From positions 62,001 to 126,000 of the forward strand of contig FMBT01000320.1 of assembly GCA_900095095.1 (NCBI GenBank): a DNA stretch of 64,000 nt, read 5' to 3'. The stretch is from Fragilariopsis cylindrus CCMP1102. Lineage: Eukaryota > Bacillariophyta > Bacillariophyceae > Bacillariales > Bacillariaceae. Of this stretch, positions 4,801-47,680 are shown piece by piece. Positions within the stretch are counted from its first letter, which is position 1. Every line of letters begins with the position of its first letter. Under the pieces are notes generated by a model. The model did no database searches. It had not been told where the DNA came from and saw only the letters and a program-made list of their open reading frames with translations. A program made the translations under genes and the position numbers.

Positions 4801-5036
4801 TGTTGAGATTCTAGTTTAGATAAGAGATTAGTTGAGTTGTTAAGGTTGTTCTAAACGATTTATGAGTTCTATCTTAGGCTGTTAGGCTGTCCTTGAGACG
4901 CTGTGTTGCTTGTGTTAGTGGCGATAGGCACTTGTCGTTTGAATTGGTGTTTGACTGGCTTGTGTTACTGTTTGAATTGGTGCGCGATAGTAACGGTATT
5001 TGAGGTCTGTCCGTCGTGCGTGTTAAGATTTCAACA
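4801..5036 (-). repeat. 5' LTR of the Copia-type element
   Basis: On the minus strand the segment starts TGTTGAAATC and ends AATCTCAACA, giving the expected TG...CA ends with an imperfect terminal inverted repeat (TGTTGA-AT against TGTTGA-GAT). The left limit on the plus strand falls exactly where LINE ORF2 loses its sense and acquires a short foreign tail with a stop. The bases after 5036 on the plus strand, GGACC, would be one copy of a 5-bp target duplication; the other copy is out of the window. The primer-binding site should lie at 4800 downward; I could not match it to a tRNA. Confidence 0.72.
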
Positions 5037-8000
5037 GGACCCAAGCGCAACGAGGGGACATAGCGGAGCACGCTAATTTTCTTACCAGCGACATAGATTT
5101 CTTCATGAGTGTTTTGTGCTGTTGTTTTTGGTGTTTGCCTATTCCTTGTTTTGTTCCAAGGAAACTGTATGTCTGGTATGCTGAAATTGGTTTAAGGATG
5201 ACGTCTTTCTTATTTAGTCGGTCTTGGATAACGATATTGATGGTTGGATCTGCGGGTGCAACGACTGGGCCTCCGTTCTGTGCGAACGTGTAATTGATTA
5301 CTTGAGTGAAGCATTTGTCGAGATTTAGTGCTCCTCCCGTCGCTCGTAGTAGGTCGTTCCATAGCTGTGCGTCGTGTTGAGTCCGTTTGATGACGTCGGC
5401 GACACTCTCGCCTTCTCTTCCATTGTTGGTAATATTGTTGTCGTCAACGTAACCCAGCATGTGGAGCATGACTTTTAGAGTGTTCCACGGGTCCGTATAG
5501 ACGCATCCGAAACCGAACTTGTCATGTGCATCGAAAGTCTTTGAAGCGATCTTACTCCATCCTGATCCTGATGCGCCGCTGCCTTGGCCTGATCCGAATG
5601 CCGGAGATTCCTTGGAGTGCTGGTATGTTTTCTTTGATATGCCAATCCCTGTTTTTATTGCGTACTTTGCCACCATTAGTAGTTTTCCCAATATTGTTGT
5701 GAGTTTTTGTGGCATTCCGTATGAGCGGAGGCATAGTGTTAGTATGTGGACTAAGATTCTGTCGAAACATGCCTTAGCGTCGTTGTTGAAGCGAACCAAA
5801 ATAGCTCTCATTATCATCGATAATTCTGTTTGTGTTACGTCGACGAATACTGGGTCAATTGCTCTCTTGTTTGGTCGGCAGCCATAAACTCCTTTATTTA
5901 TTAGATAATTGTCTTCGCAGTGTTGGTCTAGCTCTCTGAAAAATATCCCAAGTAGTAAGTTGAGATCGCACTCATATAAATGTATTATCCTCAGTCGGTG
6001 TATTCTTGGTATGCCTACATCCTTTCCTATCATGCATGTTAGTATGTATATCCATCTATCATAAACATGTTCGTTATCGTAAGCTGTTTGTAGCATCAGT
6101 GCATGGAGATCGATGATATCGGTTCGCATGCCTTCCAATTTGTCTCTTTCCTCATCATTTTTTGCTTTTAGTGGACGGAACAGCGCATGGAAGTGTCCTA
6201 GATGTCGTCCCGAAGGGGATGTACTTGTTCTTTCTTTCCATATTTTGTATTTGTTCATCATTTTCTCTGCTGTAATGGTAATGGTAATCTCAGGTGAGTG
6301 TCGTTTCATAGAGGCGAGAAGATATCGTGACCATTCGTCGTTGGTGATGTCTGTAGGGTCGCTTTTGCCATCCAGTAATTGTTCTGATATTTCTGTATTC
6401 GCTCCCCATCCTATCTTCTCTATCACATCATTAGTTGCTAGTGGTGTTGTTTCTGCCTGCCGGAAATGTCGGATGTTTTTACTCAAAATGATTCTTTCAA
6501 TTGTTGGTCCGTCGGTCACTGGTGTGTATTCCAACTCAAGACCTTCTTTTGGTAATGGTACTAGTAATGACTTGATGCTCCCTGGGCAGTTCATTTTGGA
6601 CGGAAGTTCAGACATCATTTGTTTGGTATCTCTTGCACGTTGGAATATTTGTGCGGCACGCTTTGCTCCCATTTCTGGGTTCATTGCTACAAAGGCTGCT
6701 ACTTGTTCTTCGTCTACTGTTGTTTGTTGCGTTCTCTGTTCTTTTATCAATTTTCTGCATTTGAGTTGCGCAGTTCGTAGTGCTTTGGATACTACTTCGG
6801 TTTCCATTGATAAAATTATTCGTTTAAGTAATAGTCTTTGTTTTTGTTCAATTTGTTTGTCGCAATCGATGTTGTTTTTCAGGCTTGATAGTTGTATTCG
6901 TAGTATGTTGGCTGTAGTCATCACCTCGTTGACTTCTTCATTCCATGGCAGTCTGTGGTGGGAACGACACTTGTTCTCTGCTTCTAACATTCCTTTGGTG
7001 ATTCGTCTGTCAAGTTTCTCCAAGTCCTTCTGAGTATAGTAATTTGTTTGGACTTTTGCTAGTCTGAATATGTCGTTGGTTGTTAAATATTTGTGTAATT
7101 GTTTGACATAGTTTGTGATGTTTCCTGGGTGTGTGCCTCTGATTGCACGTGATGATGCTGAGAATATTGACGGAAGTTGTCTGTCTAGGAAGCCTGCTAA
7201 CGCAAAGTCAACAAAATATCCTCGGTGGTCGGATACTATCCGTGCATGGAAAGCTTCATATCCGCTCCTCAGTATGTGATCAACCATCCTTGGTGTGACA
7301 AAAACGTAGTCTAGTCTTTCGTGCCCTCTTGTGTATGTGGTGATATCTATTTCTCCGTGTTGATGTCTGTGTGCGTCAGTGAGATTGCCTGCCGCTAGGA
7401 CTTTCACCATTGCGTCCAAATCATTTCCGACTAGTTCATTGAAATCGCCTGTAAGAATAATATCTTTGTCCTCTCTTCTAGCCCTTTTCACCAAGTCAAC
7501 GAGGTCCGTAATGAAGATCTTTTTGGGATCTGGCTCTCTGATGTTTTTCAGTTTGTATAGTGCTATTTGTTGATTGAACAATGTGTCGTCTCCGACTTTT
7601 GCGTTAACAAACTGAGAAACATTGTACGCTGTAATTACCATTATTTCTCTGTTATCTCTTCCTAGCATCGAGACGCCACACCACCTTCCGTATGGGTCAG
7701 TTATTGTTTCGCGGACTCTTCCTACGAGTGATCCTGTGACGCCAACTAAGTTTCCCCCTGGTTTTGTGAATGTTAGAACTGGTGCGGCGGATGATGAGTG
7801 AACTATTTTGCAGTCTTCACTACCGCTCCTCCACATCTTTTGTTTGGATAGCCGAAGTGCTCTTCTTGCTGTTGCGTTCGATTCGTCTCCGTGTGTTTCA
7901 TTGAATGTGAAAATGTCTGCTCCTACTTGTTTCATTTCTAGGAATGCCGTGTCCAAACCAATGCCTTCTCTATCATATATACCATTTACATTCTGACAAT

Positions 8001-8166
8001 AGAGTCGGACGTACGGGGTATCGTTGTCGACTGCTACCTCGTCACATATGTGTCCATGTGGCAGATTTTCTGTTTTCATTTTAAGTTTATTTTGCGTTCG
8101 TTGTTGTTTCTTGTGGCTTTTGTTATAATCTGTTGTTTCTATGTCTATTGAACCGTCTGCATGCAT
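5023..8166 (-). CDS. LINE ORF2: endonuclease-reverse transcriptase, truncated by LTR insertion
   Basis: ORF2p nicks target DNA and primes reverse transcription on the nick. Residues about 45-310 form an exonuclease-endonuclease-phosphatase domain: LYCQNVNGI at the start, FNETHGD with the catalytic Glu, TGDFNELVG, and SDHRGYFVDF at the end. The reverse transcriptase covers about residues 600-1000, with SGRHLGHFHAL, the first catalytic Asp in NDAKACFDRI, a glycine/serine-rich GSGQGSGASG in place of the usual QG-x-P-L-S-P box, and GYVDDNN. The last four residues before the stop at 5023 come from the Copia LTR, so the true C-terminus is lost. The frame is open upstream of the ATG to about 8337 and overlaps the end of ORF1. 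Confidence 0.86.
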   Translation of the reverse strand: MHADGSIDIETTDYNKSHKKQQRTQNKLKMKTENLPHGHICDEVAVDNDTPYVRLYCQNVNGIYDREGIGLDTAFLEMKQVGADIFTFNETHGDESNATARRALRLSKQKMWRSGSEDCKIVHSSSAAPVLTFTKPGGNLVGVTGSLVGRVRETITDPYGRWCGVSMLGRDNREIMVITAYNVSQFVNAKVGDDTLFNQQIALYKLKNIREPDPKKIFITDLVDLVKRARREDKDIILTGDFNELVGNDLDAMVKVLAAGNLTDAHRHQHGEIDITTYTRGHERLDYVFVTPRMVDHILRSGYEAFHARIVSDHRGYFVDFALAGFLDRQLPSIFSASSRAIRGTHPGNITNYVKQLHKYLTTNDIFRLAKVQTNYYTQKDLEKLDRRITKGMLEAENKCRSHHRLPWNEEVNEVMTTANILRIQLSSLKNNIDCDKQIEQKQRLLLKRIILSMETEVVSKALRTAQLKCRKLIKEQRTQQTTVDEEQVAAFVAMNPEMGAKRAAQIFQRARDTKQMMSELPSKMNCPGSIKSLLVPLPKEGLELEYTPVTDGPTIERIILSKNIRHFRQAETTPLATNDVIEKIGWGANTEISEQLLDGKSDPTDITNDEWSRYLLASMKRHSPEITITITAEKMMNKYKIWKERTSTSPSGRHLGHFHALFRPLKAKNDEERDKLEGMRTDIIDLHALMLQTAYDNEHVYDRWIYILTCMIGKDVGIPRIHRLRIIHLYECDLNLLLGIFFRELDQHCEDNYLINKGVYGCRPNKRAIDPVFVDVTQTELSMIMRAILVRFNNDAKACFDRILVHILTLCLRSYGMPQKLTTILGKLLMVAKYAIKTGIGISKKTYQHSKESPAFGSGQGSGASGSGWSKIASKTFDAHDKFGFGCVYTDPWNTLKVMLHMLGYVDDNNITNNGREGESVADVIKRTQHDAQLWNDLLRATGGALNLDKCFTQVINYTFAQNGGPVVAPADPTINIVIQDRLNKKDVILKPISAYQTYSFLGTKQGIGKHQKQQHKTLMKKSMSLVRKLACSAMSPRCAWVLLKS

Positions 8167-10860
8167 TTGGTGGGTGGGTTGTGTTGTTTCTATTGGAATC
8201 TCTGATTGTGTTGCTTGGGGTTGTCTTGAAGTATTGTCAACTGCCTTTTCTGCCTGATCAACCTTAGCGTAGTAGTGGGTCTTGCGTCTCCTGTATTGGG
8301 TCGTGGTTCTGTTGAGTTGGTACTTGGCTGTTAATCTCTACTTCCATTTCATCTTGTTTTTGCTCCGTCTGTCCTGATGGTTGCGTTGCTTGTGTTACTT
8401 GTTGTGATACTTCGTTCTTCCGTTTCTTCTTGAGATTTTCCTGAATGTGTGCCTCATCTGTTGTTTCGGTTGTTGCTGAATCTATGGTGAATGCCTGTGC
8501 GGCTGGGGCATGTCCTGTTGCGTTCTGAGTCATTAATGCCATCATGGATTGAAACATTATTCGGTTATTTTCATCTCTTCTTTCTTCGTTCCTTTGCCTT
8601 GCTTCTTCGTTGCGTTGTCGTGCTGCTGCTTCTGCCTTTCTTTCTTCGCGCTCTATTTTCCTTTCCTCTTTCTCTTCCTTTCTTCGTTCTGCGTCCTCTG
8701 TTCTTGCCTGCGAGATAAATTCTGTCAGTACGGACATTGCCTCTGATTGCATTGTTTGTTGGTCCGTGTTAGTGATACCCGTTCGCACTGATTGTGTGCT
8801 CTTTCCTGCTTCGGATGGTTCGGATGCGACACTGGTAGCGGTATTATCTGTAGATGGTGGTGCTGCCACTGCTGCCCATGACTGTTGCTTCTGGCTCTTT
8901 CGCACGGTTGGTCTTCTGTTAAGAATACTTGACTGTATTGCTGGGAAACCCTCCGCGCTTCCAAAATCGAATTCAATTTTCGTGGAGATCCTTTTCCGTG
9001 CGGGTTTTGGTACTGTTGGTGCATCAATTCTGCTTAATAATCCTTTTGCATTCTGTTCTGCGTACTTTCCTATCTTGTGGGGACCGATTATCGTTGGGTA
9101 TTGTTGATACTTTTCCAATGCTAGTACTCTGAATTCATCGTTTTCTTCAATTGTTTTGGCTAGTGATTGACACATGACTTGTAATATTCGTTTGAATGCA
9201 GGGAACCCTTCCGATTTACATAGAATGATATACCGTCCTTCGCTTTCTGTGTCTTTTGTGGACTCTATTGAAACTACCCCTGAACCTGTCAGCACCCATT
9301 CTCTTACTGTTGTGTAATTTGCCGCCTCGCATGGTCGATACTTGTGGTTCCAATATAGTTCATGGAAGTATTTTACGGAGATTGTCCTAGTATTTTGGTG
9401 AAACGCTGTATTTTCTTCAATGATTTGGCTATATTTGTCGCCGTCTAGTTCTCTTACTGCCGCGTCTGATACTATACTGGTGCCATTTCCTAAGTACGCA
9501 TGGTCTAGCATACCTACTAGTTCTCTAATCACTGGTGCTGCAGGTTTGTATGCCATGACACATATTGCCTCGGTTTGATGTCCCTGATGTGTTACTGTTT
9601 TCGTGTACAGGTCTATATCATGCATCCGTGTTGGTAACTGGTTGAGTAATCGGTGGTTGTTGTCTCCATAGTTTGCTTGTTGTTGGTTGATTCCATTGCA
9701 TAGTTTGTCTTTCATCTTAGGTTTGTAAGTTACTCTGCTGTGTGCGTTCAGTATCCAACATACACGTACTTTTGAGTTGTTGCTTATTTCGTCGTTCCAC
9801 ATTCCTAAATTGTGTTCCTGTAGGAATGGTAATGCTCTTCTTTTGATGTCAAGTACGGAAACTGGTGAGTATACGTGATGTGTGTATTTGACTTTATCTC
9901 GTATATCTACTCGGTGAAAGAACTTTTGATGCAGTAGGTGATGTTGTGGGAAGTCTTCAATCGTTGTAATTCTGATAGGTGTGGGTGTGGTTCTTGTATT
10001 TGATGCTGCGAATGTTGTGAATGGAGCTACCGTCATGATTTCCTTAATGAATTCTTTGTGGATGGACCCTACTGTGTTGGCTGGTGTGCTGCGGATGTCG
10101 AATTCCAACGTAAACGTTTGCAATACATTAGCGTCGTGCCCTGGGCCTGATGCAATTGCTTCGTTGGTTTCTTTTTCTTTTTCTTTGTCGTCGCCGTCCT
10201 CTTTTTGATTATCCTCTTTGTTGTTCTTTGCATCCTTGTCAGTGTTGTTGGTTTCTCCTACATCTTCGGTGTCGCCTTCGTTCATTCCAGTGTCTCTGTT
10301 GTTCTCTACATTTCTAGTTTCCTTGTCGCTTGTTGTGTTTCCTTCGCCTTCATTGTTGTCCGTTGCTTTGCCATTTGATTGTTGTTTTTGTTTTGTTTTG
10401 GTAGATTTTTCCGGTGTATTTCGTTCTTCTGGTCTATCTTGTGTTGAGTAGACTCCATATTCGTCATACCGGCATGGGTGTGGCTGTTTGTTGATGAGTT
10501 CTGTTCTTGCCTTCGCTCCGCCGCTTGGTACTACCTGCCATTCATTATGCCTGTCGGTGAATGTCTGTTTTAAATCAATTTTTGGTCGAATTTGGTCAAA
10601 ATCGCTACTGAATGTAGATCCGATGGATGCTGTGTCCCATGGGTTGTCCTGATGAGTGATACGTTGTGTCCTAGACGCTATATTGTTATGGAATACCATG
10701 GTCGATACGCTAAAAGGGCAGGTAGAAGGGCGAATAAAGGGGTATGTGAAGTTAACTGTACGTGTTTCTACGCGTTAAAAGCTGGTGACTGGCAGACGAA
10801 ATCGACACTGAGGTGCGCGTTTTCAAATGAATTCAATTTAGAATTGTCCCCCCTGGAGTA
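5037..10860 (-). mobile_element. LINE-like non-LTR retrotransposon, interrupted by the Copia insertion
   Basis: Two minus-strand ORFs form the standard two-ORF layout. ORF1 (10699-8264) has an acidic linker and a coiled coil. ORF2 (8166 downward) has an apurinic-type endonuclease followed by a reverse transcriptase with a Y-V-D-D box. The 3' part of ORF2, the 3' UTR and any tail are displaced beyond the Copia element to the left. The right boundary, about 10860, is set where sequence shared with dispersed repeats elsewhere in the window begins. The element resembles the Ambal-type LINEs reported from diatoms, but I did not run a phylogeny. Confidence 0.82.
8264..10699 (-). CDS. LINE ORF1-like protein
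   Basis: This 811-residue ORF precedes the endonuclease-RT ORF by 97 bases and is read in a different frame, the position of a LINE ORF1 protein, which usually binds the element's RNA. Visible parts are: an N-terminal region of no known motif; an acidic, N/D/K/E-rich linker at about residues 100-185; a longer globular-looking region at about 190-600; and a highly charged coiled coil rich in RKEEKEERK and RQRNEE at about 690-735. The C-terminus is Q/T-rich. I see no clear zinc knuckle or RRM. Function is inferred from position only. The ATG at 10699 is the first in the frame. Confidence 0.72.
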   Translation of the reverse strand: MVFHNNIASRTQRITHQDNPWDTASIGSTFSSDFDQIRPKIDLKQTFTDRHNEWQVVPSGGAKARTELINKQPHPCRYDEYGVYSTQDRPEERNTPEKSTKTKQKQQSNGKATDNNEGEGNTTSDKETRNVENNRDTGMNEGDTEDVGETNNTDKDAKNNKEDNQKEDGDDKEKEKETNEAIASGPGHDANVLQTFTLEFDIRSTPANTVGSIHKEFIKEIMTVAPFTTFAASNTRTTPTPIRITTIEDFPQHHLLHQKFFHRVDIRDKVKYTHHVYSPVSVLDIKRRALPFLQEHNLGMWNDEISNNSKVRVCWILNAHSRVTYKPKMKDKLCNGINQQQANYGDNNHRLLNQLPTRMHDIDLYTKTVTHQGHQTEAICVMAYKPAAPVIRELVGMLDHAYLGNGTSIVSDAAVRELDGDKYSQIIEENTAFHQNTRTISVKYFHELYWNHKYRPCEAANYTTVREWVLTGSGVVSIESTKDTESEGRYIILCKSEGFPAFKRILQVMCQSLAKTIEENDEFRVLALEKYQQYPTIIGPHKIGKYAEQNAKGLLSRIDAPTVPKPARKRISTKIEFDFGSAEGFPAIQSSILNRRPTVRKSQKQQSWAAVAAPPSTDNTATSVASEPSEAGKSTQSVRTGITNTDQQTMQSEAMSVLTEFISQARTEDAERRKEEKEERKIEREERKAEAAARQRNEEARQRNEERRDENNRIMFQSMMALMTQNATGHAPAAQAFTIDSATTETTDEAHIQENLKKKRKNEVSQQVTQATQPSGQTEQKQDEMEVEINSQVPTQQNHDPIQETQDPLLR

Positions 10861-21431: not shown

Positions 21432-24400
21432 ATGGAAGTGAATCAACAAGTATGGTTACGTCGTGAATCCAGTCATTGGGGATGGGTACCCGCTGTGATT
21501 GTACGGAAAGAAGAAGAAACTTTGGACAATAATAATAATAATAATAATAATAATAAAGACGAATCGTCTGTCTTTATTCATTTAGTCAATGATCATTCCT
21601 TATCATTAACGGACGATGAACGTCATTACTTCGAGGATGAAAAAGAATTTAAAGTTGTTATTAAAGTAGATAAAGAACAATTAAAATCCGCTGCACATGA
21701 TGATATTAAACTACGTAATATTAATTCATTGACACTTGATGGTAATGGTGGTAGTAGTCCTACTAAAGATCATAAGAAGAATGGTGTTAGTGATAATGAA
21801 TCAAGTAGTATAGCAGTAGTGGTCGGTGGTGTGGATGATTTAATTGGTTTAACCCATTTACATGAACCAGCAATCTTACATGCGTTACGATTGCGATATG
21901 ATAGTGATATTATTTATACATCGACGGGACCTATTTTAATTGCTGTCAATCCCTTTAAACCAATGCCGACATTATATCAAAGGAATGCCATGGATTTATA
22001 TCGTATTCAAGGTGAAAATTCCATGAAAGCCAAATCTGATATTTCACAAACACCAATGAAATCGAAATCAGCTACGAAAAATAGATATAATGGTGCTGCC
22101 TACAACAACAACAAGAAAGGTAACAACAAAACAAAAGAAACGAGATTATCACCGCATGTTTATCAAACAGCGGATGATGCCTATCGACAAATGTTACGTG
22201 GACTTGAAACACAAAAATTAATGCAATTGAAGAAAAGTAAAAATCCCAAAGCAACACCAATTAGACGTGGTGAATCACGAATTGAGGATACAACGAATCC
22301 TGTGGATCAATCGATCCTTGTCAGTGGTGAATCAGGTGCTGGTAAGACCGTTACCACCAAAATTGTTTTAGATTATTTTGCGATGTTAAGTAAGAAATGT
22401 ACTAGTTCTACTGATGACAACAGCAACAACAATAACAATACTACTACTACTACTCCACGTAAAAGTTGGGGTGGTAGTGTAAGTAATGCAAGTCCACGTA
22501 AAAGTTGGGGTGTTGCTACATCAAATTCAAATTCAAAAAATCAAGATCAGGATGTATCAATTGAACAACAAGTCTTACAATCCAATCCAATATTAGAAGC
22601 CTTTGGAAATGCACGTACGATACGAAATGATAATTCATCACGATTTGGTAAATATATTGATATTGCCTTTGATCACAATGGTAAATTAATTGGTGCTTCG
22701 ATTGAAACATATCTGTTGGAAAAAGTACGGCTGATCCATCCGGCCGAGAAGGAACGGAATTATCATATTTTTTATCAATTTTTGTCATCGGCAACTGCCC
22801 AACAACGACAAGAATTCTTTTTAACGACAAAAACTGCCATTGATTTTCGATTATTATCTGATAGTGGTACCTTTGATCGAAGAGATGGTGTTGATGATTG
22901 TCAAACACATTTCGAAATGTTAACGGCCATGGTAAGTGTGCTCTTGTGTTGTGTTGTGCTATGCTGTGCTATGCTGTGCTACCGTATGCTGTTGTAAGCG
23001 TGTTTGTCTTTTGTGCGTACCGTCACTGGTATGTTTGAGTATATGCGTGCGTGCGTGCGTTCGCTTGCGGGGGATGCCATTTATATTTATATGCCTACTT
23101 CTTTTCCCGTTCTGTCCTTCTTTGTATCATCCCCCCATTTGGTCGGATGGAATGGAATAGAATCTGTTTGTTGTGGATGGCATTTTTTTGTTCTGTTTTG
23201 TTGTGCAACATATTGTATCTGCTGTCTATTTCTGGCCTACCATACTTCCCCCCTACATGCCATTTGATTCATGATAAAACATTGTAACTAACTGCCGTCC
23301 GTCCTGCCTTCCTTCCTAATCCCCTCCCCCTTTTATTACATACCGATTAGAAAACAATTGGATTCTCGGAAGAAACGATTTCCTCATTGATGAGATTGAT
23401 ATCAGCAATATTATTTGCTGGTAATATGTCTTTTACACCAAGTGATGATGGTGAATCATGCAAACTCGATAAAACTAAGAGTTCATTGGCATGTGCTGCG
23501 TTACTCGGTATTACATTTGATGGATTATCCACAGCTCTCACGAAGAGATCTATAATTGCTGCGGATGAAACTGTCTTGAAGTTACTAACCATCGAGGAGA
23601 GTGGTAAAGCATGTGAAGCTCTGATCAAAGCTGTATACGGTGCAGCATTTGATTTCATTGTGGAAAAGGTCAATACAAGTTTAGATCGTACGGCAAGTGC
23701 CTCTCGACGTAAGTCTGCTGCTGCTCTGGCTGCAACAGGTGATCCACGTGCTACTCCCGGTGCATCCGGTAGTGCACCAAGTGGTGGTGCATCCATTGGT
23801 GTATTGGATATATTTGGTTTTGAAACTTTTGATTATAACAGTTTTGAACAATTATGTATCAATTATACAAATGAAGCATTGCAACAACAATTTAACCGAT
23901 ACGTATTCAAATTAGAACAACAAGAATATGAAAAGGAAGGTATCCTTTGGAAATTTATTGAATTTCCTGATAATCAAGATGTATTAAATTTAATTGATGT
24001 GAAACATACAGGTATTATGGCATTATTAGATGAACAATGTATACTTCCGAGGAGTACTGATAATAAATTTACACGATACCTGTACGCGAGATGTGATCGT
24101 CATCCAAGATTTTCTGCATCCTCGGCACAACGTGTTGATTATTTATTTTCCATTGAACATTATGCTGGATTAGTAGAATACAACACAGAGGGTTGGTTAG
24201 AAAAAAATAAAGATCAATTACCAGCATCGGCTGCAGAATTAATTAAATCATCTGATTTTGATTTGCTGTTGGACATTAACAGATTTGTTCGTGCGGAAGG
24301 TTCTGGTGCTGGACGTGGTACTGTGGCAACTAAATCTGTTAGTTTTCAATTTGCGAAACAGTTACGTACATTACGTTCCAGAATTGAAACAACTGTACCA

Positions 24401-27400
24401 CATTATATTCGTTGTCTTAAGCCGAATGATGAATTATGTCCTGATTATTTTGAACCAAAAAATATTGTGGAACAATTACGTTGTGGTGGTGTATTAGAAG
24501 CTGTGAGAGTTTCACGTGCAGGATATCCTACACGTTATCCACATGATGTCTTTACTGCACGTTACTATATTTTAGGTAATCGGAAAGATAATGGTCCAGC
24601 GAGTCCATTGTTCAGTCCGGGCGGTAATACTGCATCAATGGATCGTGATCAACGTAATGATGAAGAATTAAAACGTTTGATTGCAAAAATGGCATTAGAT
24701 CTATGGCAGATCGACCATGAACTTCATTTAGCACAGAAAGAATTGGAAAAAAAGAGACGCCAATCACTTCCATTCTACGAAGAAGTACAAACGATACCAC
24801 ATCCATCTGCTGTTGGTCACTTGCTGACACATCAAAAGAAATCACAATTACCAGTTGATTTTGATAAAGATAAAAATTTAGTTGTTGAATCATCAGTGAT
24901 GACACCAGAATTTCAGCGTAAACAATTACGTAAAACTAAAGTCAATGCACATAAGAAATCGACTGGTGGATCGGGAAGTCTGAAGAATGCATCTAATAAT
25001 AATAATCATAAAGTACCACGTCCAGAAAATCGTGAAGATTTCTTAGCATTAGATTTTCCATCCCGATGTGCTGTTGCTGGATTACAATTAGGACGAACCA
25101 AAGTTTTCTTACGTCGTGAGGCATTTGATAGAATTGAAGCCATGAGATCTGAAAAATTCTTCATGGCAGCAGCAACAATTCAAAAAGTTATTCGTGGTCG
25201 ACAAATCCGATTATGGTATACTGATATGAGATATGCAGCAATTATTGTACAATGCTTTTTGCGTATCAAAATCGCTGAACGTAGATTAAGTGCAGAACGT
25301 GTCCGTCGTGCTGCAATCATAATCCAATGTTCATGGCGGGTATTCACATCAAGACAGTATTTCTTCGAAATGCAATTAGCGAGAAGAACTGCTGCTATGT
25401 TTATTCAACGTGCATGGCGTGACTTTAAGAATACACCAGTTGGTCCAACTGATGAAGAAATTGAATCTAGTATCATTCGTGTACAATCACGATGGCGTGG
25501 TAAACAATCAAGGATTCAATATCAAATGTATCTTGCTGCACGTGAACAAGAAGAACGCGAATGTAAGTTAGTCTCAGTAGTCCTTCTATATCTTGTTCGT
25601 CTGCCTTCCCCTTCTCTATTCATCTATTAGTATTTGTGTGTCTACTACTTATCTAACGCTTTCTTTCTTTCTGTAAAACGATCACACATGTGAAGATTTC
25701 GAGCGTGTCGAACGTGAGCGTCAACAACAAGAAGAACGTGCACGTGAATTGGAACTAGAACGTCAAGAACAAGAGGCACGTGAACGAGAACGTGAATTGG
25801 AACCACCACCATCTCAATTATCTCCTGTTAACGAGCATGTACCATCGCCGGTACCATCACCACATCAACAACCTGTTGTTCATGAACGACAGCTTACTCC
25901 TATGCCCGAAGATCAGTACGTGGAATATGATTCTGCTCAACTTGAAGATTTGTTCCATGAAATTACTGAAAATAATTGGGCTGTTGTTGAAAATATTTTA
26001 GATAAAAATCCTGAATTAGCAGAAGCACAGGACGATAAGAGTGGAGAGTTAGCTTTACATAAAATTGCACGTCATTCTGGTGCATGGACGTTATTGATTG
26101 ATATGGTATTGGTTTTATATCCAAAGGCATTGATCCATCGTGATAATATGGGTGCATTACCAATCCATCACGCGTCGGCACATGATAACCTACCTGCACT
26201 AGAAATCATCTATAGTGCCTACAAAGAAGGGATTAATGATACAGATAAGATGGGACGACTACCGATTCATGTTGCAGCAAATTATGATGCTGTTGATGCG
26301 ATTAAGTTTCTTTTAAAGATGTCTCCGGAGGGTGCGTATACTATGGTATACAGACCACCTCATAATTCTGGTGGTGGCTTACCATTACATATTGCATGCC
26401 GTAATCATGGTTCGATTGGTGTCATCACAGCATTATTGGCAGAGAATTTTGCTTCTGCTAAACGTACTGATGAAAATGGCGATTTGCCGTTGCATTTATT
26501 ATTACGATGTGGTGAAGTAGTTGATCCTGTGGTAGTCAAGACATTACTGACGTGCTTTGCTGGTGCTGTTTCACGAACTGATATGAATGGTGATTTACCG
26601 TTGTCGATTGCTATCAAGTATTCATGTTCCTCTACTGTTACGAATTCAATCTTGATGCAATTGCCTGATGCTGCTTCTGCCCTTGATGGTGAAGGACACA
26701 GTCCATTGCATTTAGCATTCTATCATTGTGCTGATGATCGTACCATTATGGGATTGTTAAATCATGCACCGGAATTTGCAACCCAAGAAGATAAGAAGAC
26801 CGGTCTACTTCCTATTCAAGTTGCAACAGATAAGGAACATACCCATTTTATTGTTCATTCTTTATTGAAACGTGATCTACCAATTAATATGAAAGAAAAA
26901 GTTCGTGCACAATTGGTGCCACATCGTTATTCTTGGAATCATGTTGTTGCTAATTGTGATGATTTGTATTATCAGGTTATAACAAAGATTCTGCAGTCTT
27001 GTACACAACCACAAGTATTAGCATTAGCACATATTGAAGGTCCTGATGGTAAGATTGCATTAGCAGCAGCAACACCGGTATGCAAGCACGAGATGCGTGT
27101 GATGTTACGATTGTTTAATACTCTTGAGGTTGTCAATCAACGTCCTGCATACACGAATCCTGATAGTGATACACAAATCTTTTACGCATTACGGTATGAT
27201 CCACCACCACAAGTAGCAGCTGGAGGTGACTTCAGAGTCATTCATGAAGAAAAGTCTGATGGTAACAATGCTGGTGATGATTACGTTGAAGATTTTGATG
27301 ACGTGACCGTGATGTCCACCACGTCCAAGATGAGTACCCGTTCGGCACTAACAACACGAACTCAACATAGTATTGATGATAAACTTAGGATAATTCGTCG

Positions 27401-28499
27401 TGAAAAGGGACAACAAGTTATTGCTAAATTGACCTCCAAGTCAGAAATTGTTGAACGTGAACTTAAGATTCGCAAGGATTTTCATTTGTCACGTCATTAT
27501 GTTCCTGCTGTTATTAGTGTCCATCATACCGTACAGCACGCAGCATATTCTGAAGCAATGGCTGAACCTGGATATTGCATCACGATGGAAGGTGCCGATA
27601 CAACAGCTGAGAATCTCATGCTCGATATGCGCAAACAAGGAAAAGCATTCCCAGAAAAGGCATTGAAACGAATTGGTATTAGTTTATTGCATATTCACGA
27701 GCATGGAATTATTCATGGTGATTTTGGTACGCACAATATTGGTAAATTTGGTTCACGATGGAAATTATTAGGCGTTGGTGGTAGTATTCCCTTAGGACGA
27801 CCAACGAATCCATCACGTGGTTTTTATCATCCCCCTGAATCAATTGTTGTTGAAAATCGACGATCGACTAATCCTATGGGCAAGAAGTCCTATAACTCAA
27901 GTGTTGTTTCCATTCCTGCTCATCCAACATACGACATTTGGGGATTCGGTGTTGTCTTATATGAAGGTATTGCTGGGCTACCTCTTGGTCCATACGCGTG
28001 TCGTGGAAAGAGATCAATGAGCTCAAGTGAGGTTGCTAAAATTGGTTTATGGGATGACAACAGTCTGAGGAAGGCCTTGAAGCACATCCCCGACCATACC
28101 GATGGTGGTGCTGCCCGTGATCTTATTAAATTCATCTTGAATCCGGATCCAAATAAACGTGCAACATCAATGCGACAAGTATTAGAACATCCTTTCTTTG
28201 GTGGAGAACAGCAACGAGGACAACAAATCCAACAACCCGACCAAGTAACAGGTATGGAAAGACAAGTTAACGGTGTTATGAGAGGTAGCTCCCATAGTCA
28301 CCAGCTTCATGTCCAGCAACAACAGCAGCAACCCGAAGCCATTCAGAAGATGGGATCAGGATCGACTGATTACTCAATCGAAAACAATGAGAATGGTGTG
28401 AAGGGACGTACAAGTGGTGAATCAATGAAGTCCGGAAGAAGTTTTGGGGGATTCCGTAAATTCAAGAACACGTTCCGTGCTACTAGTAAACAAGAATAG
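21432..28499 (+). CDS. Myosin motor / IQ / ankyrin-like / pseudokinase fusion protein (3 exons)
   Basis: Exons 21432-22931, 23351-25562 and 25696-28499 (GTAAGT donors, AG acceptors) give 2171 residues. The motor is complete: P-loop GESGAGKT at 299-306, switch I NDNSSRFGKYI from 399, switch II DIFGFE at 653-658, and the actin-side segment VPHYIRCLKPND near 855. Variable inserts rich in N, T and S lie near residues 30-45 and 325-365, and about 165 extra residues lie before the GRTKVFLR converter end. Five IQ-like motifs follow (about 1095-1230), then an R/E-rich helix. Ankyrin-like repeats (GALPIHHA, GRLPIHVA, GDLPLHLL, GHSPLHLA) cover about 1313-1620. A kinase-like fold at about 1810-2075 keeps HGDFGTHN, PPE and DIWGFG but has GVG where DFG is expected, so catalysis is doubtful. 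It is probably an actin-based motor with a protein-binding tail; the cargo is unknown. Confidence 0.88.
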
Positions 28500-29753: not shown

Positions 29754-31078
29754 TTACTTCTTGTCAGATGATGACTGCGTGCAATTATCATTCTTGGTGT
29801 TGATCGAGGTGGAGGAGACAGTGTCGGTAGATGTCGAAGTTGACAACGATGTTAGCATTGTAATAGAAGTACCAGCCTTAATGCCACCGTTATCGTCGGT
29901 TCGTCCATCTTCCTGTAGTAGATGCTTGGGCAATTGCAATAATGCATCGTTAGGATCCTTACATAAGAGGGTATACAAACCTTCCAAATGAATTGTTTCA
30001 TCGGTCACTGCCGACATTAGCAGCGAAGATTCCGTAGTGCTTGAAGAGGCAGAAGCAGCGAAATAGTTCGCTATACAATCGAGAACTTCATTCATCACTT
30101 TTTCCTGTTTATGCTTATCGCATGCTAAATTGAAAGCCGTTGAAGTCGACTCGGTTCCATCGTCTCGGTTCCTTTGAGTACCCTCACAAAAGACGAAAAC
30201 ATCATAATCCAGCCTTTAATACTATCTTGAATATCTGAAATTTCTTCAGGGGCAGTCCAGTGAATAGGTAACATATTTCCATGTTCGGGTTCACATGGTA
30301 TAGTCAATGTCATCGGATCCCAATCAACAAAATACAAAAGCCTTGTTCCAGAAAAAATTCCAATGTTAGCCATGAGCAATCTCCCCACCAAATTACATTC
30401 ATTAATGTCTTCTTTTTTTAGGTGATTATTTTGTCTAAGTCGTTTCCAGACTGCTGAAAAACATTCATCAACAAGATCGGTGGTTCCATTTTCAATTCGA
30501 TCGTAACAGATAATGAAATGCAAAACGTTCCATTCTTCATCAGCATATGTACTCAATAATCCTTCTCTCAATTCTTCATCGAACTGACCCAGCTCAGATC
30601 CAAGTTCTGCCAGCAGCGGAATGCGTGATAGATTTTTCAAATTGTATGCCATATTACCCCCTTGACGACGTCCCGCCCACATGATAGGATACATTCCAAA
30701 TTTTTTTTCCGACAGTACATCGGGGAAATATCGAATTGCCTTCGCTATCTTTCTTTCGTCATCATACCAGTCTTCGTCAACGATAGTCTTTGTCAAACCA
30801 CGCTCTCTTTCTTCACGTTCCGCTTCTGCTACATTACCAATCATTATTAATTTTTGGACAGCAGTTCTTACTTTTGAAAGGAATTCATTCGCAATACTGT
30901 TTACGGCCTGATTAATTTGTCCATTGATAAATGGTGGAAGCTCTGACTTGGATCTACTGCCAAGAATCGAAAGGACTTTTTGTCCCTCCGGTGACAGCAG
31001 GTGTTCTGCTTGTAATTGCTGCTGCTGAAGTAGTTCGTCCTCCTGACGACGATGCTCGTTGTTTTCATGATGATTCAT
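29754..31078 (-). pseudogene. Ankyrin-type diatom protein, frame-broken
   Basis: Two minus-strand frames form one gene. The 5' part (31078 to 30125, first ATG at 31078) has phrases typical of a diatom ankyrin-like family: FGMYPIMWAGRRQ, IPLLAELGSELGQFDEEL, NLVGRLL, YFVDWDP, MLPIHW and DSIKGW. It stops at 30125 with a short nonsense tail. The 3' part continues in another frame as AFNLACDKHKQEKVMNEV and runs to 29754 with an S/T-rich end. Compared with family members as I recall them, about 15 residues seem to be lost at the junction (about 30130-30190), together with one frame shift. The N-terminus is Q/E-rich. Ankyrin folds bind other proteins; no partner is visible. It could be a recent pseudogene, a sequencing error, or an allele. 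Confidence 0.7.
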
Positions 31079-31467
31079 CGTTTTATTAGTATCGATTCGA
31101 TTCCTTTCTTGACTCGACTCAACTCGACTCACTCCTCTAACTAGATTATATTGCGGTAGATAAAATATTTTGAATTCAAAGCAGAAGATGATTATTTGAA
31201 GGATGTCACCGAATGAGAAGAGTGAACATAAATTAAATAATAATAATGAAGTGTGGGTGTTGTTTCAAGTTTCAAGTTGCGCAAATAATGGATCAGTACA
31301 AAACGAGTAGAATTTGTACGTGAACTGTGCTGGTTTACAAGAACGACAAGAATGACAAGAACAACAAAAACAACAAAAACTACATGAACAACGAACACCA
31401 GCACCAGCATGTACACAGCACCGGCACCAGCCCCAGCCCCAGCACCAGCACCATCGTCGTCGTACCT

Positions 31468-42934: not shown

Positions 42935-44617
42935 CCTTTCAATGAATGCGATAAAAAGAACGAAATGGAACCAATTTCAGTTTGTGTTGATGGAATGGGA
43001 ACTCTCTTTGTTGATTTGGATTATATTCAAAATGGGTCTTGCTATATTCAAAATATGGACAGGAAAACGTTGCTAAGAATGACTGTGAAAAAGTATTAGT
43101 ACCACAGAATTATATTGACTGCAATAACTATCCACCAATAGATAAGAGATGGTGATTTAAAGGTCAAAATCATTGATCCCACGAAGAAAGTGAGACATCG
43201 TCTTCTACTAGGACACTCACTCTCACTCTCAAAACGGCACGGATAGATGGATCAGTCCTGTCAAAGGAATTGATTTTGCGGTAGGAGACGGGTTTTTTAT
43301 TTCTTTTCCTATCTTGCCATGCAGCAGCAATCAACAGTCAATAATAATAATAATGATAGAGTGATATTATTATAGACGCAAGCAACACTCTCAAATAAAT
43401 AAAGAAAGGGAGAGCATTTCTTTTGGTAGGAAAAAAATTGTTTTGTTCGAATGATAAAAAAGGTAATGGTTCGAATAGTGAATTAATTGTACTTGACGAA
43501 AAAATATATATTTCAACACTAATAATATATCCGTCGTAGAGCAGAATGAATGAATGAATGAATAAATGAATCGAAATAATAGTCGTGTCCGAATGAATTG
43601 AATTGAATTGAATCGAAATTTTTCACATAATATAAAAAATGAGATCCAGGAAAAATCCCTAATAAAAAAATCAATGTACTGTACTCGCAAAAAAGAATAC
43701 AATTACGACAAACTAAAATAAGAACTTACTTAGCATATACTGTACTAACTGTACGTGATAGAATGTACGTGATAGTAGACGAAAGAAGAAGAAGAAAACA
43801 TTGTTTCTGCTCCTTGCAAAAAATAAACAAAAAAAAAATCGTACACCTACAGTAACTTACTTCCTCCAGCGATGTTAGCCCTAATTTACTATTGCGCTAC
43901 TATCGTATGAAAATTGAGCGCTTTGTAAAATAAAAGGACACTAAACTAAAACACCTTAAAAAATCTACCTAATACAGTAAATTACAAAAATAAAAATGAG
44001 ATGTGTACTAATTTTGATCGTGATACTGTAGCGCATTAATTGTAAATTAGCGCTCGCTCGCTTGGAGGGAAGTACCTACCATTCAAAAAAAAAAAATCAC
44101 AAAAAAAAACATCAACCACAACACAACACACCATCATCATCATCATTATATACATATTTATATCACAATAATAAGAAAAGCCAAAAAAAACTAACACAAT
44201 ACTAGTACAGGATATATCTCGCTCCACTGGGCGTATTGCCTTTTTTCTGTATATAAAGTAATTCGAACAACCTACGAACGTGCCGGTAGCTAACCGTCTC
44301 TAATAATAGCTACAGTACGACAGTAAGATACTCCCACAATATTCATTCATTCATTCATTCATCACGACTGCGACTGCGACTGCTTCCGGTATTGTTATTG
44401 TTATTGTTTGGAATTGGAATTGAATTGAATTGAATGGAACGAATGTGTTGTGTTGCCTACCTGCCTTAAATTAACTTACCTACTAAACAAAAAACAAGAA
44501 CGACAACACAAAACGAACAAAACGAAACGAAACGAAACGAACAAAAGAGTAAATAGTTATTTTATACAGTAAAGCTAGTTCCAACAAAGATCTGCTTGTG
44601 CATGTGCTGTGTTGGAT
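42935..44617. other. Intergenic, simple repeats
   Basis: The first 200 bases may hold the decayed tail of the sulfotransferase-like relic. Short repeats: GAAT near 43547-43570, GAATT near 43595-43615, CAT near 44125, ATTC near 44341-44362, ACGAA near 44520-44545. No gene is recognised. Confidence 0.45.
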
Positions 44618-45055
44618 ATGATTCTTCGATTATTGCAGCAGCAACAATTATTATTATTATCGAGGCGGAGTAGTAGTAATAGTCCGAGTCCAAGTCCAAG
44701 TCCAAGAAGAAGTAGAAGTAGAAGTAAAAGGCGAGCAGCATCAATTTGTATTTGTATACTGACAATGACGATGATGACAATGATGACGAGGACGATGACG
44801 ATGTCAAAAAGGATACCACTAATAAGAAAAAAGAAGACGTTGTCGTCGTTGTCGACATCCTTCATTTTTGTCAACTCTTTGTTGACGAGCAGTAGGCACA
44901 GTACTAGTACTACTACTACTCGTCGTCATTATACTTATCGAACTACTACGTCATCATTGTCGTCCAAACAACAACAACAACAACCACAACAAGGACTATT
45001 ACTACGTCAGCAACAACATCGCACACCATTTTCTATGTTGTCATTGTCGTTATCA

Positions 45056-45088
<33 letters not shown>

Positions 45089-47514
45089 TCGTCTTCATTA
45101 CCTAATAATGGTGAAAATCCAACACCTCCAACAATAACACCAACAGTACTAAAATTACAAGATTTGTCCTCACTGGCACTATCAATCCATGATCGTCTTC
45201 AAACACTTCTTCACATGAATAATATAAATCTCTCTACTACTGTTATCAATGAGAATGACAATAAGAATAAGAACAACAACAAGAGTAGAATAATATATAA
45301 AATACCCATCAGTGTAGCGGTGAGTGGTGGATGTGATTCGATTGCTTTATTACATTCCTTATTGGAATATCACAACTATAATCAAAATAGAAATAGAACT
45401 ACAACTACAAACTTACTACTGAAATTCGATATCACCATCCTTCATTTTAATCATCAACAACGTCCACTAGAATCGGAAAAAGATTGTCAATTAGTACAAG
45501 ATCTAGTAACAGCAGTAGCAGCAGATGGTGTGAAATTTCAATTATATGATTGGAATGATAATGAGAATGATAATGATAACGACGACAGCTATGAGGATAA
45601 CAATGCAGATAATGACAATGACAATGACAATGATACCAATGATACCAATGACAATGACGATAACAATGACGATAACAATGACACCAATAATACTGATACT
45701 ACGTCATTATCATTTTCACAAGATACAGCAAGAAGATGGAGAAGAACGAAATTAAAGGACTATACACAAAATCGTCTCAAATTTCTGAGACAAGAACAAC
45801 AACAACAACAAGATCAAGATCAACAACAAGATCAACAAGACAAAATAATCATACCATTTGGTCTAATACTCACTGGTCATCATCAGGATGATTCCAATGA
45901 AACAATAGTATTAAAATTATTACGAGGTTGTCATTTACTTAATTTACATCAAAAAGGTACAATACAGAGTATAACACAAATGAAATCACAGTCATCATCA
46001 CAGGTACCTGCATTAACATCATCATCATCATCATCACAGGTGGTTGCAACTACTACTAAAGATAATGAGGATGATGACGATGAAACGAAGATCTATCTGG
46101 TTCGTCCATTTGTGAGTATGGATATTGATTATGACAATAATAATATTGATAGTACTAATAATAAGAAGAAGAAAAGTACTAAACATGGACATACCAAACA
46201 AGAATTAATGAATTATTTAACCATACGAAATTTGAGATGGAGAGAAGATCAATCCAATCATGATGCAGATTCGAAATATCTTCGAAATCGGATACGGAAT
46301 GAATTATTACCTCTCCTGCAAAATATTACAAATAATTCATTTGTTGACAAACGATTGCCATCGATACTGAAACAAAGTCAAGAATTATATAATGATATCC
46401 AACCCAGAAAACAGAATTATCTTCAAAACAATAGTCTTTCCATATCTAAAAATAATGACAATAATAATTATGACAATGACAATAATTATGACAATGATAA
46501 GAATGACAATGATAATGATAAGGAGTATTTTTTTCGTATAGTACCACCAAGCAATAGTAAGAGTAATGACAATAACAATGACAATGACAATAACAATGAT
46601 AACAATGATGATGTGATATCCAGATTAATACGTTCCCAAGCATTATATGAATGGATCACCAAACGTATCACTATATTATCAGCGCAATTGTCATTGTCAT
46701 CTACATCTAGTAGTAGTAATAATTCGAACACTATTTCCTATAATACATTGCAACGTATTATGGATCAAATTGATAATACTAACAATAATAATAATAATAG
46801 TAATAATAATAATAATAATAAATGTTGGATATTAGAACTAGGTTCGGGATATAATTTAGAACGGATTGGTGATGTAGTGAAAGTTACTACTAGTACTACT
46901 CCTACTACTAATCAAACAAGAAAAAGAATTGAATGGGAATGGACTATTACTACTGACATTGGTAGTGATAATGACAATGATAATGATAGTGACGATACTG
47001 ACGGTAACGACGGTATTATTCGTTTACGTCTACCTATGTCGGAGGAATTAAAATTAAAAAACTTAAATTTCTTTTCAATGACCTTAAAAGATGCTGAAAC
47101 AATAGCCAGAAATGGTGCTACTACTACTAGTACTGCTACTGCTACTGCTACTGCTCTACGATTTGTTCCACCACCAAGACCAAGTAGCAATCACAAGAAC
47201 AATCACAGGAGCAATCACAATAGTAACAGTTCGAATAATACTCTGCTACATAAAGAAAAACAACGAAAATCAATGAAGATCCGTGATTACTTACGTGGAC
47301 AAAAAATACCATTGTATCAACGTGATTATATTGAATTACTTTTTATGTCATCAGATAATACTAGTGAACAACCACAACCACAACAAGATTATGAACAAAA
47401 TCAACAAGATGAACAAAAACAAAATCAAAATCAAAATGAACTAAATGATGAACACCTTGTAGCAGTACGTATAAATAATAACTGGATTATTGATCATCAA
47501 TTTAATATTGACAA

Positions 47515-47546
<32 letters not shown>

Positions 47547-47680
47547 ATAATAATAGTAAAAAAATTGACAATGACAATGACAATATTAATAATAATAACG
47601 TCAACGTCAATGACAATGACGTACCTACTACTAGTAATAGGATAATGACGACACTTGTTCTTTTAAAACCAAAAAACTAA
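44618..47680 (+). CDS. tilS: tRNA(Ile)-lysidine synthase (TilS-type), organelle-type, with N/D-rich inserts
   Basis: TilS converts C34 of tRNA-Ile(CAU) to lysidine so that it reads AUA, a step needed in plastids and some mitochondria. The PP-loop ATPase core is clear: ISVAVSGGCDSIALLH with SGGCDS at 236-241, ILHFNHQQRP, LILTGHHQDDSNETIVLKLLRG with H421-H422 and D424-D425, and KQELMNYL, NLRWREDQSN and YLRNRIRNELLP. A C-terminal recognition domain follows (KIRDYLRGQKIPLYQRDYIE, then NNWIIDHQFN). At 1020 residues it is over twice the bacterial length because of N/D, Q, S and T runs between conserved blocks. I start at the ATG 44618; the first 150 residues are basic and S/T-rich, fitting an organelle leader, but the cleavage site is unclear. 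No intron is needed. Confidence 0.88.

What the first reader, a model, noticed from the sequence alone, without database searches (positions are those of the whole stretch)
21432..28499. Myosin motor fused to ankyrin-like repeats and a kinase-like domain lacking the DFG aspartate
One spliced frame links a complete myosin head (GESGAGKT, NDNSSRFG, DIFGFE), about five IQ motifs, ankyrin-like repeats and a kinase fold that keeps HGDFGTHN, PPE and DIWGFG but reads LLGVGGS where DFG should be. A motor with a built-in pseudokinase at the end of the tail suggests a scaffold or regulated-cargo motor. I cannot say from memory whether this exact order has been described in stramenopiles.
Basis: partly seen in the sequence, partly recalled or inferred. 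Interest (0 to 1): 0.72.

Follow-up and report, generated by a model that had tools for sequence, protein, structure and literature searches.

The report
Diatom myosin with ankyrin–pseudokinase tail
A diatom gene encodes an actin motor whose tail is a protein-docking ankyrin stretch followed by a kinase-shaped domain that has lost key catalytic residues, so it probably binds partners rather than phosphorylating them.

Summary
Three exons (21432-22931, 23351-25562, 25696-28499) give one 2171-residue frame: complete myosin motor, IQ neck, E/R-rich helix, about eight ankyrin repeats, linker, kinase-like domain; Pfam scores motor, IQ, ankyrin and Pkinase above cut-off. Coding signal and a charged helix continue across intron 2, against two genes; no transcript could be checked.

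The kinase-like domain keeps the VAIK lysine, alpha-C glutamate, HGD aspartate and asparagine but lacks the DFG aspartate (GVG), the catalytic-loop lysine and a recognisable glycine loop: a pseudokinase by the usual definition.

New here: the same diatom genome holds a stand-alone relative of the whole tail, without motor and more degenerate; each is the other's best kinase-part match by far. The motor groups with two other myosins, one with an ankyrin-FYVE tail. Fusion of a motor to a scaffold protein is the simplest history.

I propose a cargo or anchoring motor docking through an ankyrin-pseudokinase scaffold, working like integrin-linked kinase, kinship not shown. Eukaryotic collections were not searchable, so orthologues and novelty are untested; a 2007 survey already notes ankyrin and kinase domains at either end of myosins.

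The parts
21432..22931 (+). Exon 1: start codon, N-terminal extension and first half of the motor (aa 1-500)
   Evidence: open frame, Myosin_head 1.1e-79
22326..22349 (+). P-loop GESGAGKT (aa 299-306)
22626..22652 (+). Switch I NDNSSRFGK (aa 399-407)
22932..23350 (+). Intron 1, GTAAGT...TTAG
   Evidence: part of the one combination of 12 that stays open; negative coding score in all three frames
23351..25562 (+). Exon 2: rest of motor, converter, IQ neck (aa 501 to first base of codon 1238)
   Evidence: Myosin_head 1.4e-111, IQ 7.1e-06
23567..23569 (+). Candidate TEDS-site residue Glu573, 16 residues before the DALAK-equivalent EALIK (rule recalled)
23807..23824 (+). Switch II DIFGFE (aa 653-658)
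24578..25075 (+). Long insert in the converter (about aa 910-1075); a long insert at the same place is in the C109 myosin but not in C514
   Evidence: alignment A1
25178..25513 (+). IQ neck: three pattern-matched motifs (aa 1110, 1158, 1211) and two degenerate ones
   Evidence: pattern; Pfam; degenerate ones by eye
25523..25802 (+). E/R-rich helix, about aa 1225-1273, interrupted by intron 2; single-alpha-helix-like (term recalled)
   Evidence: in aa 1221-1275: 30 of 55 residues charged, 11 i,i+4 opposite-charge pairs, best heptad 5 of 16
25563..25695 (+). Intron 2, GTAAGT...GAAG
25696..28499 (+). Exon 3: end of helix, ankyrin repeats, linker, kinase-like domain, stop (aa 1238-2171)
   Evidence: coding score +0.36 between acceptor and first Met
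25935..26933 (+). About eight ankyrin repeats (about aa 1318-1650), type GxLPIHxA
   Evidence: Ank_2 2.6e-19, five stretches; eight motif starts, aa 1354-1606
26934..27194 (+). Linker (about aa 1651-1737) conserved in the stand-alone relative
27381..28199 (+). Kinase-like domain (about aa 1800-2072), pseudokinase
27714..27737 (+). HGDFGTHN catalytic loop: Asp and Asn kept, catalytic-loop Lys replaced by Gly
27771..27779 (+). GVG (GGC GTT GGT) in the DFG position

Best explanation
This is one diatom gene for a class V-like actin motor whose tail is an ankyrin-linker-pseudokinase scaffold. The motor and its calmodulin-binding neck look competent (shown by motifs only). An E/R-rich helix extends the lever. 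The ankyrin repeats and pseudokinase dock partners, so the motor carries or anchors a signalling or adhesion complex on actin, or is switched by it (inferred). The pseudokinase lost phosphotransfer (inferred from missing residues) but kept the VAIK lysine, alpha-C glutamate, HGD aspartate and asparagine, so it may still bind a nucleotide as a conformational signal (inferred). The module exists separately in the same genome, so the myosin most simply arose by fusion of a motor to a whole ankyrin-pseudokinase protein (inferred).
For: Single open frame with canonical splice sites. Profile hits for all domains. Coding signal continues through the 68 codons upstream of the first exon-3 Met: 3 of 1112 tiles of the rest of the window score as high. 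Charged helix spans intron 2. Solved structures nearest to exon 2 include myosin-Va, 274.7 bits, third distinct sequence listed. The stand-alone C59 relative is colinear over ankyrin+linker (8e-28) and kinase part (4e-25); for the kinase part each is the other's best match in the assembly by far. Motor groups with C109 and C514, support 0.993. Pseudokinase residues. Kinase fold in the model.
Against: No transcript or protein evidence. No orthologue outside this genome was found, and no eukaryotic collection could be searched. Fission of C59 from a duplicated myosin is not excluded. The model has low mean confidence (pLDDT 55.5) and was guided by 11 other kinases in its alignment, so it is not independent. 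The DFG reading rests on one codon in a single assembled copy. Class V likeness rests on PDB matches only, and single kinds of tail function cannot be told apart by sequence.
Confidence: 0.6

Rival explanations
1. Two adjacent genes were joined by eye: a myosin ending near 25630 and a separate ankyrin-kinase starting at the Met near 25902.
For: An unspliced message would stop at 25628-25630, and a Met opens exon 3 (aa 1307); the stand-alone C59 protein shows the module can exist alone.
Against: The 68 codons before that Met score as coding (+0.36; 3 of 1112 tiles reach it) and carry on the charged helix of exon 2; intron 2 has canonical ends, keeps frame and scores as non-coding. Only 65 bases lie between the exon-2 stop and the first base of exon 3.
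Confidence: 0.06
2. The kinase-like domain is an active, unorthodox kinase that phosphorylates the motor, its cargo or actin-associated partners without a DFG aspartate, as some kinases break the usual rules.
For: VAIK lysine, alpha-C glutamate, HGD aspartate and Asn are kept; the review PMC4718504 (passages seen) describes kinases lacking canonical residues that are active (WNK, CASK) or bind ATP; CASK is among the listed Foldseek matches.
Against: DFG aspartate and catalytic-loop lysine are absent and no glycine loop is recognised; the only close relative is more degenerate still (HGN, no VAIK lysine).
Confidence: 0.12
3. The tail is a regulatory clamp: the pseudokinase folds back on the motor and holds it inactive until a partner or calcium-calmodulin releases it, rather than a cargo dock.
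For: Many unconventional myosins are tail-autoinhibited (recalled); IQ neck and long helix would allow it; Glu at the candidate TEDS site would, by the recalled rule, leave control to something other than phosphorylation there.
Against: Nothing in the sequence shows a head-tail contact; the ankyrin repeats favour partner binding.
Confidence: 0.18

Closest known systems
Class XXXIV myosin (one IQ, short coiled coil, five ankyrin repeats, FYVE; Odronitz and Kollmar 2007, PMC2375034, passages seen)
   Same: Stramenopile myosin with neck followed by ankyrin repeats; the C514 myosin of this genome has a similar layout, its FYVE in a following frame, and is among the nearest motors
   Different: Ends in a kinase-like domain, no FYVE match; its ankyrin repeats and linker match the stand-alone C59 protein; several IQ motifs and a converter insert
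Class XXXI myosin (many IQ, ankyrin repeats flanking a PH domain; PMC2375034 and PMC3942036, passages seen)
   Same: Stramenopile, ankyrin in the tail
   Different: No PH or Aida_C2 match here
Class III myosin (N-terminal kinase + motor; PMC3942036, passages seen)
   Same: Motor and kinase-type domain in one chain
   Different: Kinase at the N-terminus there; at the C-terminus and pseudokinase here
Integrin-linked kinase (ankyrin + pseudokinase; PMC6203859 abstract and passages, PMC4718504 passages)
   Same: Ankyrin repeats then a pseudokinase, acting as an actin-linked scaffold
   Different: ILK keeps the DFG aspartate (DVK) and is not a motor; no kinship was shown
Oomycete ankyrin-kinase PITG_06288 (15 ankyrin repeats N-terminal to a TKL kinase; PMC3019232, passages seen)
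   Same: Stramenopile ankyrin-then-kinase order
   Different: No motor mentioned in the passage; kinship not tested
Stand-alone ankyrin-pseudokinase of the same genome (C59, L063)
   Same: Colinear over ankyrin, linker and kinase part, 24-27% identity
   Different: No motor in the stretch read; HRD reads HGN and the VAIK lysine position reads Glu

Membership tests
Myosin superfamily | Motor domain with P-loop, switch I, switch II, SH1 region and IQ neck | tested here: met
   Pfam Myosin_head and IQ above cut-off; motifs
Class XXXIV myosin | Ankyrin repeats after the neck | tested here: met
Class XXXIV myosin | C-terminal FYVE domain | tested here: not met
   no FYVE match in exon 3, Pkinase instead; FYVE 32.2 bits, cut-off 27.8, at C514
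Class XXXIV myosin | Motor falls in the class XXXIV clade | tested here: inconclusive
   the ten-sequence tree holds nine own-genome motors and one MAG contig, no named class: groups with C109 and C514, support 0.993, but outside C109+C514, support 0.942
Class XXXI myosin | PH domain between ankyrin repeats | tested here: not met
   no PH match at E up to 1
Class III myosin | N-terminal protein kinase domain | tested here: not met
   Pkinase matches exon 3 only
Active eukaryotic protein kinase | VAIK lysine and HRD aspartate | tested here: met
   VIAK (Lys1815) and HGD (Asp1913)
Active eukaryotic protein kinase | DFG aspartate | tested here: not met
   GVG in the alignment with ten fetched own-genome kinases plus L064
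Active eukaryotic protein kinase | Glycine-rich loop | tested here: inconclusive
   Pfam match begins at profile position 18-20; model aligns from residue 21-22 of DAPK; the stretch upstream is low confidence
Pseudokinase | Kinase fold lacking at least one of VAIK Lys, HRD Asp, DFG Asp | tested here: met
   definition from PMC4718504
Integrin-linked kinase | Ankyrin repeats followed by pseudokinase | tested here: met
Integrin-linked kinase | Kinase domain of the ILK family | tested here: inconclusive
   ILK not among the rows shown (60 of 262, 60 of 203, 50 each), which does not exclude it

The most novel reading that the evidence does not exclude
A previously undescribed myosin layout in which a motor was fused to a complete ankyrin-pseudokinase scaffold protein, giving a motor that is its own ILK-like adhesion or signalling adaptor, with the pseudokinase sensing nucleotide to gate cargo or motor state.
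Probability: 0.3. Interest if true: 0.75.

Novelty: new variant of a known kind. Interest (0 to 1): 0.5.

Why it matters
Pseudokinase scaffolds such as ILK act on actin as separate proteins; here one is covalently part of an actin motor. If real and conserved, it offers a single-chain system to test how a catalytically dead kinase controls a motor, in diatoms, where a 2024 paper (PMC11420354, passages seen) says that no diatom myosin had been functionally characterised to date. The stand-alone relative in the same genome gives a natural control for the tail without the motor.

Tried and rejected
Viral contigs: scans with exon-2 motor, tail, motor alignment and tail alignment gave 4, 19, 78 and 52 pattern matches and 0 confirmed relatives each. 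Bacterial/archaeal genome contigs with the motor alignment: 39 pattern matches, 2 relatives, both in one pond MAG filed as Verrucomicrobiaceae. They look like protist contamination; by eye no ankyrin-kinase tail shows in the plus-strand frames of 120 or more residues (minus-strand frames were printed only in part). PDB searches of the kinase part, single and with the two-sequence alignment, listed general kinases (Aurora, RSK, CaMKII and others), so no kinase subfamily is assigned.

A count of myosins by the Pfam family did not complete. The two motor-exon searches give the same myosin loci, which I collapse by eye to nine genes (C674, C109, C514, C306, C532, two in C232/C84, two in C384/C54); such counts are lower bounds. 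The tail search did not list the ankyrin repeats of C514, so its silence about other loci is no proof of absence. In the frames printed (110-130 or more residues, match plus 1500 bases on either side) I saw by eye no ankyrin or kinase tail other than C514's. The kinase family search of the genome scored 118 of 358 candidates and did not list this domain.

Literature: in the rows listed and passages opened I found no motor-ankyrin-kinase order (searches; several lists were cut at 10-20 rows). The library lacks most subscription journals, supplements could not be read, figures are not held, and a paper on Phaeodactylum myosins (Heintzelman and Enriquez 2010) is not held. The main text of the 79-class survey PMC5583752 has no 'ankyrin'. 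PMC2375034 states that ankyrin repeats and the Pkinase domain occur at either end of myosins, so a C-terminal kinase domain as such is not new. PMC8613185 and PMC8215601 (passages) held nothing on this layout.

Considered and set aside: assembly or base error at the DFG codon. One copy of the locus is listed in the assembly, so it cannot be checked here, but the missing lysine and the relative's losses do not depend on that base.

Full report
Gene. The window lies in a 67.9 Mb assembly (C674:62001-126000) with 27 silicon-transporter family matches, so very likely a diatom. The reported frame is real: exons 21432-22931, 23351-25562 and 25696-28499, introns with GTAAGT donors and AG acceptors, 2171 residues. 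Scored with 7687 codons from other genes of the same genome, the exon pieces are +0.20 to +0.36 in frame and both introns negative in every frame; the 68 codons between the second acceptor and the first Met of exon 3 score +0.36, a value reached by 3 of 1112 plus-strand tiles of the rest of the window (a first version, trained on window ORFs that include retroelement-like ones, agreed). An E/R-rich helix runs through the junction. Two separate genes are therefore unlikely, but no transcript was seen.

Motor. Pfam reports Myosin_head on both exons and IQ above cut-off. P-loop, switch I, switch II and the SH1 region are present; the residue at the TEDS position is Glu573 (rule recalled). The best solved matches of exon 2 are an entry named 'Motor domain of myosin' (293.1 bits), an 'Unconventional myosin heavy chain' (281.9) and myosin-Va (274.7). 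A long converter insert (about aa 910-1075) also occurs in the C109 myosin but not in C514. Two motor-exon searches of the assembly list the same myosin loci, nine genes after collapsing apparent haplotype pairs by eye. In a ten-sequence tree of a stretch around switch II to SH1 the query joins C109 and C514 with support 0.993 (identities 45% and 50%). C514 has myosin head, IQ and ankyrin repeats in one frame, and a FYVE match (32.2 bits, cut-off 27.8) in the next frame, joined by inference: close to the layout published for oomycete class XXXIV (PMC2375034, passages), though that class has one IQ motif.

Stand-alone relative. The assembly holds a second protein with the same order, on C59 (L063): ankyrin repeats, linker, kinase part, 1306 residues as I spliced it at GTAAGT/AG sites with a start Met chosen by eye, no motor in the stretch. 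BLASTP joins it to the myosin tail in order: ankyrin plus linker 8e-28 (24% identity, aa 1319-1738), kinase part 4e-25 (27%, aa 1807-2072). Its kinase part reads HGN for HRD, ERL for DFG and Glu for the VAIK lysine; Pfam gives the last 195 residues 25.9 bits, under the cut-off of 31.7. Searched with either kinase part, the other is the strongest match by far (7e-19 and 1e-18); the next are ordinary kinases at 5e-06 and 0.013. So ankyrin-linker-pseudokinase is a unit with its own existence, and a fusion to a motor is the simplest history, though a fission cannot be excluded with two members.

Mechanism. Most likely an actin motor that docks through this scaffold. ILK is the working analogy: its ankyrin and pseudokinase domains each bind a partner, and ATP bound at the dead site tunes actin bundling (PMC6203859, abstract and passages). 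A pseudokinase with GLR for DFG (STRAD-alpha) still binds ATP (PMC4718504, passages), so loss of the aspartate does not exclude nucleotide sensing here. Docking, cargo and sensing are inference.

Novelty. Ankyrin tails are known in stramenopile myosins (classes XXXI and XXXIV), kinase domains in class III, and the 2007 survey says that ankyrin repeats and Pkinase domains occur at either end of myosins. An oomycete protein with ankyrin repeats before a kinase is known (PMC3019232, passages). I found no report of motor-ankyrin-pseudokinase, but the searches were limited and other diatoms could not be searched. I rate it a new variant of a known kind.

Noticed in passing
L066, L040, L027 (C514:37601-44354, minus strand): A diatom myosin with IQ motifs, coiled-coil-like stretch, canonical ankyrin repeats and a FYVE finger in a following frame: close to the class XXXIV layout reported for oomycetes in 2007.
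   Followed up: partly
L063:2296-6528 (C59, minus strand): Stand-alone ankyrin-pseudokinase protein colinear with the myosin tail, more degenerate catalytic residues.
   Followed up: yes
L077, L078: Myosin-encoding frames, broken as if by introns (L077 with PH-like repeats by eye), on contigs filed under a Verrucomicrobiaceae MAG: probably protist contamination of that bin.
   Followed up: partly
window 5026-8337, minus strand: 1104-residue frame with an endonuclease/exonuclease match (24.8 bits, cut-off 24.5) and a reverse-transcriptase match under its cut-off: looks like a non-LTR retroelement.
   Followed up: no
window 30128-31264, minus strand: 379-residue frame next to the myosin with no Pfam match at 0.001.
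   Followed up: no
window 44579-47677, plus strand: 1033-residue frame with a PP-loop (ATP_bind_3) match.
   Followed up: no
G000 C232/C84, C384/C54, C95/C158, C80/C545: Several loci occur as pairs with equal or nearly equal scores on two contigs: probably partly separated haplotypes; the myosin locus C674 is listed once.
   Followed up: no
L026 (C109) and window 24578-25075: Two myosins of this genome carry a very long insert at the same place in the converter.
   Followed up: no
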